Source: Nocardioides pinisoli
Lineage (GTDB): Bacteria > Actinomycetota > Actinomycetes > Propionibacteriales > Nocardioidaceae
NCBI RefSeq assembly: GCF_024199985.1
Contig: NZ_JANARS010000002.1
Span: 372,001 to 436,000 of the forward strand
DNA: 64,000 nt
Reading direction: 5' to 3'
The notes under the pieces were generated by a model. It saw nothing but the letters and a program-made list of their open reading frames with translations. It was not told where the DNA came from and did not search any database. Below, piece by piece: positions 47,997 to 51,932 of this stretch (positions are counted from its first letter, which is position 1; each line of letters opens with the position of its first letter). Both the position numbers and the translations under genes were made by a program.

Positions 47997-48275
47997 GAGG
48001 ACTCAACCGTGACGTGCGAGCGCACTGTCTCGATCGTGTCGGCCTCGTGCGGGCCCTTGTCGTCGCGGTAGCGCAGGACCCGCGCGAAGCGGAGCGCCAC
48101 GCCGCCGGGGTAGCGCGTGGAGCGCTGGAGCCCGTCGAAGGCGATCTCCACGACCTGCTCGGGCCGGACGGGGACGACATAGCTGTCGCGGACCGACGCA
48201 GGGGAGACGGCCAGGTCGGTGAAGCGCTCGGTCTGCCAGGCCAGCATCTCGTCGGTCATGCCCTTGAACGTCTTG
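47993..48275 (-). pseudogene. Displaced native 3' end of the ATP-dependent DNA ligase gene
   Basis: Read on the minus strand this encodes about 93 residues (KTFKGMTDEMLAWQTERF onward, VRPEQVVEIAFDGLQRSTRY, ALRFARVLRYRDDKGPHEAD) homologous to the end of the ligase at 50376-51932. It is high GC like the chromosome and keeps its own stop, but has no start of its own; an ATG at 48259 lies within the homology. If the 2,401-bp insert were removed at the shared AACGTCTTG, this segment would join the ligase frame after FVMLG and complete it. I therefore read it as the original ligase end. Confidence 0.88.
48267..48275 (+). repeat. Left junction repeat AACGTCTTG (attL-like)
   Basis: Nine bases identical to 50668-50676. 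Left of it is high-GC ligase tail; right of it starts the low-GC insert. Confidence 0.75.
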
Positions 48276-48300
48276 GCAGAAACGAGTTACCGACGGAGCA

Positions 48301-48963
48301 TTACGCAGGACCGAGAGGCGGCTCTAGTGACGTGCATGAGCCGTTCGAGTAGGTAGCATCACCGCAGACCGCCAGAAAACGGCGAAAACTTCGACTGTGG
48401 GTTGCCATCTCGACGATTGAAGCAGACTTGAGAATCTCAGGAGCGTCCTTCGTCTTTTCGTACTTTCCCTTCCCCAACCCACGATTGATCAGCGATTCGG
48501 CGTCCGCGCAACTGTCGGCTCGCCCCTTGGTATAACCCTTCTTGATCTTCTCCGCGTTGGGGTATTTCGCTGGGTGAGCAGCAAAGGCTCCGCAGGCGGC
48601 AATGAGCCAATGTTCAAACGTGCGGTCCTTGACTACAACGCGAACGTTGTCCCCGAAATCCTTCGCAAGCATCTTCTCGATGTCGGCTGCCCGATCTGCC
48701 GCCGACTGAGAGGCACCTTCGCGATCAAGCAGGACCACGACCAGATCTGCGCCCTTGGCGAATGACAGACGAACTCGGTCCGCGCATCCTCGGCTCACTA
48801 CCGGTGGTGGCGCAAGCGGGTCCACGGCCGCCCTCAGCGGCTTCAGGTACTGCGTACTTGTCCTCTCTGAGAGCGCCTCGTACAGCCCTGGGAGCGCCAG
48901 TACCTCAGAATCGCCCTCCGTGACGATCCCAATCTTCTTCAGTGTTCTCCGCCGGGTAGCCAT
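48301..48963 (-). CDS. TOPRIM-like (DUF4276-like) protein of the AAA-TOPRIM pair
   Basis: 220 residues. The N-terminus KKIGIVTEGDSEVLALPGLY gives the TOPRIM Glu (about 16). ADLVVVLLDREG gives the acidic D-x-E pair (80, 82), and DRTFEHWLIAACGAF resembles the third conserved block of DUF4276/OLD-type TOPRIM proteins. A Cys/Lys-rich C-terminal half follows (KKGYTKGRADSCADAESLIN). TOPRIM domains paired with ABC-like ATPases act as nucleases in OLD, Gabija and PARIS systems. Starts at ATG 48963, overlapping the ATPase stop (ATGA). Low-GC codon use. Nuclease activity is inference. Confidence 0.7.
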   Translation of the reverse strand: MATRRRTLKKIGIVTEGDSEVLALPGLYEALSERTSTQYLKPLRAAVDPLAPPPVVSRGCADRVRLSFAKGADLVVVLLDREGASQSAADRAADIEKMLAKDFGDNVRVVVKDRTFEHWLIAACGAFAAHPAKYPNAEKIKKGYTKGRADSCADAESLINRGLGKGKYEKTKDAPEILKSASIVEMATHSRSFRRFLAVCGDATYSNGSCTSLEPPLGPA

Positions 48964-50294: not shown

Positions 50295-50375
50295 GGTGCG
50301 ACGTCTCCGGTTCGATGTGGTCCAGCTCAGAGTGTCTGGGTGTATGGGCCTCGCGGCCAGATGTCCACGTGCAGC

Positions 50376-51932
50376 CTAGAGGTAGGAGAGGACCGTTGTG
50401 ATGGTGTCCGCCTGATCTGCGGACTTGTCATCGCGATAACGGATGACTCGGGCGAAACGGAGTGCTGCGCCGCCCTCGTAGCGGCTCGACCGTTGCACGC
50501 CGTCGAACGCGATCTCAACCACCTGGCTCGGCTGCACGTACACAACGTGGTCCTTCCTCTGGATCTCGAGTTCAAGGAACCGCTCGGTCTGCCACTTCAA
50601 CATCTCGTCTGACATCCCTTTGAAAGTCTTGCCGACCATGGTCCAACCGGGTTCGTAATGATCCTTCAACGTCTTGCCGAGCATCACGAACCCGGTCTCC
50701 GACGACTCGTCGCGCGCACCGAGGTGGATGGTTGACAGCCACCCCTCGCGCCGGCCCGACCCCCACTCGACGGCGAGGACGACCAGGTCGAGGGTGTGGC
50801 GCGGCTTGACCTTCACCCAGGCCGAGCCACGGCGACCGGCGGCGTAGGGGGCGGACAGGTCCTTGAGCACGACACCCTCGTGGCCGGCGGCGACGGTCTC
50901 GGCGGCGAAGGCGTCGGCGGCCTCGGCGTCGGCGGTGACGAGGCGTCGTACGCGGTGGGGCTCGGGGACCAGCGCGTCGAGCGCGGCGAGGCGCTCGTGG
51001 CCGGGGGAGTCGAGCAGGTCGCGTCCGTCGACGTGGAGCAGGTCGAAGAAGTGGGGCGTCACCGCGACGCCGGTGTCCTGGGCGGTGCGGCTCGCGGTGT
51101 CCTGGAAGGCCATCGGTCGGCCGTCGTCGGTGAGGGCGAGCGCCTCGCCGTCGAGGACGAAACGCTCGGCGGGCAGGGAGCGGGCCACCTCGACGACCTC
51201 GGGCAGCCGGCCGGTGATGTCGTCGAGGCTGCGGGTCACCACGAGCACCTCGTCGCCGTCGCGGTGCACCTGGATCCGGATGCCGTCGAGCTTGGCGTCG
51301 ATCGCCACCTCGGTGGCGCCGCCGGGGGACAGGCCCGCCATGGCGGCGGCGACGTCGGGCGCGCTGGAGGCGAGCATCGGCAGGATCGGGCGACCGACCT
51401 CGAGCCCGATCGCGGCCAGCGCCTCCTCGCCCTCGAACGCTGCCGCGGCCGCCGCGACGGTGGACCCGGCGAGCATCGCGGCACGGCGCACCGACGCGAG
51501 CGGCACGTCGGCCACCAGGGCCACCGCCTCCTGGGTGACGGCGTCGAGCGCGCCCTGGCGGACGTTGCCGGTGACGATGGCGCGCAGCCACGCCTGCTCG
51601 GCCGCGGTCGCACGGCCGAAGAGGTCGGCGACCGCCTCCTTCCGCGCGAGCTGGGAGCCCGCACCGGACAGGCGCGACATCGCCTCGAACGCGTCGTGGA
51701 CCTCCAGCACGGTCAGCGACGGCTCGTCGGCGGACCCCGGCAGCTCGCTGACGCCGCGCCAGCCCAGACCCGTGCGCCGTTGGCGGAGCGCACCGCCGAG
51801 GTAGGACACGACCACCTCGAGCTCCTCGGGCTCGACGCGGCCGAGCAGCTCCGCGAGCGCGGCGACCTTGGCCTTGCGGGAGCGGGTGGCGGCCACGGCG
51901 GCGGAGGTGGCGACGAGCTCGGCGAGCAGCAT
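50376..51932 (-). CDS. ATP-dependent DNA ligase (LigB type) with a foreign 3' end
   Basis: 518 residues. N-terminal DNA-binding domain to about 205; adenylation domain with the nucleophile Lys214 in IDAKLDGIRIQVHRDG, FVLDGEALALTDDGRP, and EGVVLKDLSAPYAAGRRGSA with WVKVKPRHTLDLVVLAVEWG. The OB domain ends in motif VI ALRFARVIRYRDDK. Residues to 421 (ending FVMLGKT) are high-GC native; from 422 they come from the low-GC insert, beginning with an extra LKDHYEPGWTMVGKT before FKGMSDEML. Motif VI is thus supplied by the insert. It resembles mycobacterial LigB, a non-essential repair ligase. Start ATG 51932, 6 bases after a minus-strand CAGGAT box. Confidence 0.9.
   Translation of the reverse strand: MLLAELVATSAAVAATRSRKAKVAALAELLGRVEPEELEVVVSYLGGALRQRRTGLGWRGVSELPGSADEPSLTVLEVHDAFEAMSRLSGAGSQLARKEAVADLFGRATAAEQAWLRAIVTGNVRQGALDAVTQEAVALVADVPLASVRRAAMLAGSTVAAAAAAFEGEEALAAIGLEVGRPILPMLASSAPDVAAAMAGLSPGGATEVAIDAKLDGIRIQVHRDGDEVLVVTRSLDDITGRLPEVVEVARSLPAERFVLDGEALALTDDGRPMAFQDTASRTAQDTGVAVTPHFFDLLHVDGRDLLDSPGHERLAALDALVPEPHRVRRLVTADAEAADAFAAETVAAGHEGVVLKDLSAPYAAGRRGSAWVKVKPRHTLDLVVLAVEWGSGRREGWLSTIHLGARDESSETGFVMLGKTLKDHYEPGWTMVGKTFKGMSDEMLKWQTERFLELEIQRKDHVVYVQPSQVVEIAFDGVQRSSRYEGGAALRFARVIRYRDDKSADQADTITTVLSYL
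50668..50676 (+). repeat. Right junction repeat AACGTCTTG (attR-like)
   Basis: Nine bases identical to 48267-48275, inside the ligase frame at the codons for Gly-Lys-Thr. A related GAAAGTCTTGCC lies 45 bases to the left (50622-50633) at the second Gly-Lys-Thr. Confidence 0.75.

What the first reader, a model, noticed from the sequence alone, without database searches (positions are those of the whole stretch)
48267..50676. Precise 2.4-kb insert that replaces the 3' end of the DNA ligase gene
AACGTCTTG at 48267-48275 and 50668-50676 marks both edges of a low-GC segment. Deleting 48276-50676 joins FVMLG (ligase side) to KTFKGMTDEML (remnant side) in frame, rebuilding a normal ligase end with its own stop. 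The insert carries a replacement ligase tail, so the gene stays open after insertion. This is the logic of site-specific islands that enter the 3' end of a gene. I know of no defence element described at this ligase site.
Basis: partly seen in the sequence, partly recalled or inferred. Interest (0 to 1): 0.93.

Follow-up and report, generated by a model that had tools for sequence, protein, structure and literature searches.

The report
Defence island in a ligase gene
A 2.4-kb piece of foreign DNA carrying a predicted two-gene anti-phage system sits inside the last part of a bacterium's DNA ligase gene and brings its own replacement gene end, at a spot where related bacteria carry larger elements with a serine integrase, the kind of enzyme that likely also put this piece there.

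Summary
Confirmed. Removing one repeat unit (2,401 bp) rebuilds an uninterrupted ligase that aligns straight through with unoccupied relatives. The insert (GC 0.588; flanks 0.730) carries an in-frame replacement ligase tail, an AAA_21 ATPase and a DUF4276 protein (PADLOC HEC-01 matches; Toprim-like model). The ligase end is an insertion hotspot: 16 of 341 family genomes show ligase body, imported tail, insert and native remnant; G036 adds a 41.8-kb element in a truncated ligase. Three of the 16, G036, and G653 of another order carry a large serine integrase at the ligase junction; in all five the joined ends form an inverted repeat centred exactly on AC, the likely crossover. The window insert has no integrase, its ends show no such repeat and resemble half-sites of different elements, so it is most likely a composite remnant rather than a unit able to excise today. 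Five of seven scanned integrase-less family inserts match defence-type families. Closest known logic: SCC in rlmH and e14 in icd. New: the ligase site, the translated half-site plus tail, and integrase-less defence inserts in two orders.

The parts
50376..51932 (-). Chimeric ATP-dependent DNA ligase (518 aa): host body plus imported C-terminal tail
   Evidence: ORF; NCBIfam NF002868, 739 bits; Pfam ligase domains; whole-protein model mean pLDDT 87.5
50671..50672 (-). attL crossover dinucleotide AC (inferred), in GGCAAG|AC
   Evidence: The dyad centre of five serine-integrase elements falls exactly here
50628..50672 (-). 45-nt translated extension (KTLKDHYEPGWTMVG): element-side attachment half-site read in frame, followed by a second GKTFKG motif
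   Evidence: Similar extensions in ligases of other hosts; first 30 nt past the core match G386 of another order at 26 of 30; host junction residues 413-424 disordered in the model
50376..50627 (-). Imported replacement ligase tail
   Evidence: 66% identical to the native tail and GC 0.593; groups with tails of G190 and G195, support 94/81
48963..50294 (-). AAA_21 ATPase, 443 aa (HEC-01A-like)
   Evidence: PF13304 5.2e-32; PADLOC HEC-01A 4.7e-47; at E<=1e-20 the only copy among 341 family genomes
48301..48963 (-). DUF4276 protein, 220 aa (HEC-01B-like); start overlaps the ATPase stop by one base
48272..48300 (-). Element-side half-site at attR (29 nt between the DUF4276 stop and the core)
   Evidence: 15 of 20 identical to the attL-side half-site of G187 (0 of 20,000 shuffles) and 12 of 20 to that of G195 (p 0.001)
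48270..48271 (-). attR crossover dinucleotide AC (inferred)
47993..48269 (-). Native ligase tail, now an orphan remnant (88-aa ORF from 48259)
   Evidence: PF04679 4.3e-8; GC 0.710; continuous with relatives' ligase tails

Best explanation
The insert sits exactly at the attachment site, in the 3' part of the ligase gene, where related genomes carry elements with a large serine integrase, and it was likely put there by such an integrase and later lost it. Shown: in those elements the integrase gene abuts the ligase junction, and the two element ends form an inverted repeat centred on AC within GGCAAG|AC of the GKTFKG codons. Shown: in the window the element end next to the ligase body is translated and runs in frame into a carried ligase tail, so the gene stays open, and the native tail is left as a remnant. 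Inferred: the window insert is a composite remnant. Its ligase-side end is of the type seen in G386 (and, at protein level, in Cellulomonas gilvus), its other end resembles the type of G187, and the region between has shrunk to the defence genes. This could follow tandem insertion, of which G386 gives an example, and internal deletion. Predicted: the ATPase and the Toprim-like DUF4276 protein act as an ATPase-sensor and nuclease pair in the manner of OLD and PARIS. Spread today would be mainly by homologous recombination through the ligase and TetR flanks, or by an integrase supplied in trans (untested).
For: Empty sites in 9 close relatives. 16 of 341 family genomes occupied with an imported tail and a remnant, plus G036 with a truncated ligase. 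Serine integrase next to the ligase remnant in G190, G195 and G009 and in G653 of another order; next to the truncated ligase body in G036. The dyad of joined element ends is best at offset 0 from AC in 5 of 5 integrase elements, 12-20 of 26, shuffle p from 0 to 0.025. Window attR half-site 15 of 20 like G187. Comparable translated extension in Nocardioides, Cellulomonas, Georgenia and unnamed ligases. G386 of another order: tail 82% identical to the window's, with a second degenerate tail inside the insert, so stacked insertions. Imported tail groups with those of two integrase elements.
Against: No close integrase in the own genome: no match at E<=1e-20 to the G190 integrase, and three distant ones at 32-36% to that of G195. 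The window's two ends show no dyad (8 of 26, p 0.33), nor do those of G187, G091 and G386, so for these the attachment reading rests on position and half-site resemblance. Eight of the 16 imported tails lack the translated extension, and four of these (G134, G015, G063, G154) are closest to their own remnant, which fits gene conversion or local duplication. Integrases of the same group also sit elsewhere (G113, G202, second G036 copy). No phage record or viral contig with the tail was found. The composite-end step rests on comparisons of 20-30 nt.
Confidence: 0.76

Rival explanations
1. Trans-mobilised cassette: the insert is a complete non-autonomous unit (half-site, ligase tail, cargo, half-site) moved by integrases of other elements, much as integron cassettes or SCC elements without ccr.
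For: Most occupied sites are small and integrase-less (13 of 16). Some are very compact: 29 nt between the DUF4276 stop and the core here; 9 nt between the ligase stop and the next start codon in G187. Several have precise boundaries at AC (G000, G187, G091), and cargo varies.
Against: No dyad in the four integrase-less inserts tested, against 5 of 5 integrase elements. The window and G386 share one half-site type but not clearly the other. No close integrase in the own genome.
Confidence: 0.2
2. Homologous or microhomology capture: a fragment of another strain's ligase end plus neighbouring defence genes recombined in through the ligase and joined by chance at AACGTCTTG.
For: The 9-bp repeat; imported and native tails are homologous; four occupied genomes have imported and remnant tails that are sisters.
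Against: Independent inserts break at the same AC; sister elements carry an integrase there; the 45-nt extension lies outside any normal ligase and recurs in other hosts.
Confidence: 0.1
3. Ancient fixed duplication of the ligase tail with no mobility.
For: The remnant persists as a short open frame.
Against: Empty sites in close relatives, GC contrast, different cargo per species, and the ATPase found in 1 of 341 family genomes.
Confidence: 0.02

Closest known systems
SCC elements and the enterococcal ECC (Ccr serine recombinases at the 3' end of rlmH; PMC4723332, PMC6222049, passages read)
   Same: Large serine recombinases; 3' end of a conserved gene; gene left functionally intact; regions partitioned by direct repeats; a recombinase-less member between repeats (psi-SCCmec, 8,884 bp); variable cargo
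   Different: Other target gene. Here the element carries an ~85-codon replacement tail and a translated attachment half-site; the SCC site is the terminal nucleotides of rlmH. Single integrase here, not a CcrAB pair
Prophage e14 in icd (PMC6379469, passages read)
   Same: Insertion inside the coding region; the element supplies the 3' end; the native end (163 bp) remains as a pseudogene fragment
   Different: Tyrosine integrase (recalled), other gene, prophage cargo; no series of integrase-less defence inserts in the passages seen
Serine-integrase phages in coding genes (Bxb1 in groEL1: title seen in a reference list of PMC8092301)
   Same: attB inside an open reading frame, short core (recalled)
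   Different: No replacement gene end known to me; the main texts of PMC8092301 and PMC10654092 hold no 'ligase' (find)
HEC-01 (PADLOC), and OLD/PARIS (PMC10568477, passages read)
   Same: ATPase and Toprim-like protein as separate genes (PARIS AriA/AriB layout); HEC-01A and B profiles matched
   Different: The second protein is DUF4276; OLD is one fused protein; activity untested here

Membership tests
Large serine integrase element (site-specific island) | Recombinase gene within the element | tested here: not met
   Window insert has none; sister elements G190, G195, G009, G036, G653 do
Large serine integrase element (site-specific island) | Insertion at the attB used by such integrases, same core | tested here: met
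   Same GGCAAG|AC junction as five integrase elements
Large serine integrase element (site-specific island) | Joined element ends form an attP with a dyad | tested here: not met
   8 of 26, p 0.33; one half-site resembles G187's
SCC-type cassette | Target rlmH and CcrA/B recombinases | tested here: not met
   Target is a ligase; sister integrases are single Resolvase-domain proteins (L085 460 aa, L088 481 aa)
HEC-01 candidate defence system | HEC-01A and HEC-01B profile matches in adjacent genes | tested here: met
   4.7e-47 and 3.1e-14
HEC-01 candidate defence system | Phage resistance activity | not testable with these tools
   Needs a plaque assay
OLD/PARIS-like ATPase-Toprim pair | Toprim fold with acidic motif in the second protein | tested here: inconclusive
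   OLD Toprim top by Z (9.0, 166 aligned), AriB 6.3, but Foldseek found nothing at E<=0.001; invariant D80, E82 and 90%-conserved E20
Integron-like gene cassette | Movement by an integrase acting in trans on cassette ends | not testable with these tools
   Needs an excision assay; ends lack the dyad

The most novel reading that the evidence does not exclude
The C-terminus of an actinobacterial DNA-repair ligase is a docking port for defence cassettes: recombinase-free units, each bringing a ligase tail whose first codons double as the attachment half-site, that serine integrases of co-resident phage-like elements insert, stack and exchange across bacterial orders, an integron-like immune platform built from a housekeeping gene.
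Probability: 0.2. Interest if true: 0.82.

Novelty: new variant of a known kind. Interest (0 to 1): 0.64.

Why it matters
It gives a defined attB, several integrases with readable attP sites, and a set of small single-system inserts, so the question of how short integrase-less defence genes move between strains can be put directly to experiment. It also shows a protein-coding gene whose end is repeatedly exchanged, with the attachment half-site itself translated. The site is a simple address for finding new defence genes: some inserts carry proteins without a matched family (G025, G386).

Tried and rejected
Early inference dropped: alignments ending near query 2674-2682 looked like interruptions in ten genomes. 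After fetching seven (G168, G075, G125, G118, G089, G117, G066) had body and tail joined, with diverged tails (G117 with frame shifts). G174 runs into the tail to its contig end. G036 is interrupted, and G157's contig ends at GGCAAGAC (unresolved).

Three genomes with two or more tail matches were not counted as occupied: G143, G262 and G333, whose second match lies on another contig or at a contig end, or was not in the stretch fetched.

Tail found in no phage record. In plasmid records it matched 84 records, at best 60-80% identity in 3 and lower in 81 (ten rows seen, none followed up). Integrase scans of viral contigs: none with the single query, three relatives with the alignment, none with a ligase tail. 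A half-site pattern gave four viral contigs without a ligase tail or integrase match, read as chance. In the phage collection the G190 integrase has 319 matching records, all under 60% identity, the listed ones near 28%. Rfam: no match in 46000-52500. No tRNA in the window. Tail tree: 84 columns, many open forks; the AU test neither supports nor rejects one origin of 11 low-GC tails (p 0.184). Foldseek alone found no confident fold for the DUF4276 model. Literature: no paper with DUF4276, none with all of serine integrase, DNA ligase gene, attB and attachment site; of the 52 papers, 12 were listed and the two listed with 'ATP-dependent DNA ligase' were checked (phage-encoded ligases, attB in tRNA genes). 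Others in that listing were judged by title only, apart from PMC8092301, PMC10654092 and PMC6379469.

Full report
What is there. The ligase gene runs on the minus strand from 51932 to 50376 (518 aa). AACGTCTTG flanks the insert as stated. In a script the flanks were joined by removing one repeat unit. The result aligns across the junction with 10 of 10 relatives at 85-89% identity, 9 of them unoccupied. The insert has GC 0.588 against 0.730 around it. The imported tail has GC 0.593, and 45 native tails have 0.642-0.728. From one AC dinucleotide to the other is 2,401 bp.

Which organism. The assembly is unnamed. So the window is inferred to be Nocardioides.

Hotspot. A search of the 341 held genomes of the family with the imported tail gave 289 with a match and 19 with two or more. 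I fetched loci of the other 18 (the window is the nineteenth). 16 of the 19 show ligase body, imported tail, insert, then a second tail: G000, G195, G190, G009, G025, G187, G091, G316, G134, G034, G019, G015, G152, G063, G319, G154. Three are not counted (G143, G262, G333). A further genome, G036, has a truncated ligase, an integrase and the native tail 41.8 kb on. Core-to-core lengths, where a simple pattern found both cores, run from 617 bp (G034) to 13.1 kb (G190) (positions); G009 is about 21 kb; G154 and G316 are shorter than G034 in the stretch between tails. In 12 of the 16 the imported tail has GC lower than the remnant by 0.03 or more; in G154 by 0.02; in G134, G015 and G063 the two are equal within 0.005.

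Integrases. G190, G195 and G009 carry a large serine integrase directly beside the remnant; those of G195 and G009 are 51% and 61% identical to that of G190. G036 carries a 43% relative just past the ligase break. In another family of the same class but another order, G653 has a 45% relative beside a ligase remnant, with a ligase-length open frame and an extended tail on another contig. None of the 13 other occupied family genomes is among the 20 of 341 with an integrase match at E<=1e-20. Not all relatives sit at ligase: G113, G202 and a second G036 copy do not.

Crossover. Joining the two element ends around AC gives inverted repeats of 15, 12, 16, 20 and 15 of 26 positions in G195, G190, G009, G036 and G653. 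In all five the best centre within the tested stretch is exactly AC. The same test fails for the four integrase-less inserts tested: G000 8, G187 9, G091 9, G386 9. The window's attR-side half-site matches the attL-side half-site of G187 at 15 of 20 and of G195 at 12 of 20. Its attL-side half matches G386's at 26 of 30. The simplest reading is that the two ends of the window insert come from different elements. This is an inference from short sequences.

Translated attachment half. Past AC the ligase frame reads LKDHYEPGWTMVGKTFKG, so the element's half-site is translated and followed by a second GKTFKG. 8 of the 16 occupied family genomes have such an extension (G000, G195, G190, G009, G025, G187, G091, G316) and 8 do not. 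13 of the 120 tail relatives listed from the protein database fit a strict pattern for it (P0018 and others vary outside it), among them ligases named Cellulomonas gilvus and Georgenia ruanii. In the model of the chimeric ligase the host junction (413-424) is disordered, and the imported copy (430-437) forms the strand. This suggests, without proof, that the imported copy does the work.

Another order. In 186 genomes of G386's family, G386 has a tail 82% identical to the window's over all 104 residues, while its own remnant is 67%. Its insert holds a second, degenerate ligase tail, which reads as two stacked insertions. G764 holds a 1.6-kb insert with a TIR-domain protein (PF10137).

Mechanism. 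Shown: the site, the tails, the remnants, the integrases beside them, the dyads. Inferred: integration at AC by those integrases; loss of the integrase and mismatched ends in the window insert by stacking and deletion. Predicted: ATPase-nuclease defence. A cassette moved in trans remains possible (0.2), supported by compact layout and many integrase-less cases, opposed by the absent dyads and the lack of a close integrase in the own genome.

Known relatives. SCC/ECC elements use serine recombinases at the 3' end of rlmH, and a recombinase-less SCC region is described (PMC6222049, PMC4723332; passages). e14 replaces the end of icd (PMC6379469; passages). PARIS splits ATPase and Toprim over two genes (PMC10568477; passages). 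Searches found no description of a ligase site in open-access PMC. This is a new variant of a known kind, not a new principle.

Noticed in passing
L042, L081, L082 and L134 (G036): Two prophage copies in one chromosome, 99.4% identical over the ~8.9 kb compared: one in the ligase gene (truncating it, no replacement tail), one in another gene, so this integrase accepts more than one site.
   Followed up: partly
L088 4754-17523 and L087 3008-7147: Ligase-site elements of 13 and about 21 kb carry an integrase, a sigma-like factor (L088) and a 1,380-1,486-aa tape measure protein, but no other virion protein among the few scanned: satellite-like.
   Followed up: partly
L161 2353-5817 (G386): Three ligase tails in a row (imported, degenerate, native), a natural example of stacked insertions at one attachment site.
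   Followed up: yes
L044 (G157): The contig ends exactly at GGCAAGAC in the ligase gene, as expected if an element there is repeated or sometimes excised.
   Followed up: no
L135 7206-8700 (G113): A relative of the ligase integrases abuts the start of an FKBP-type isomerase-like gene (label recalled, not scanned), suggesting another target gene for this integrase group.
   Followed up: no
L048 and L049 (G091, G134): Two inserts share a small protein ending in RRRPIKAAG.FAADLAA just before the attR side, though one is shortened: related cargo in two species.
   Followed up: no
window 47993-47996: The ligase remnant and the convergent trypsin-like gene (47109-47996; label recalled from sequence, not scanned) overlap at their ends.
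   Followed up: no
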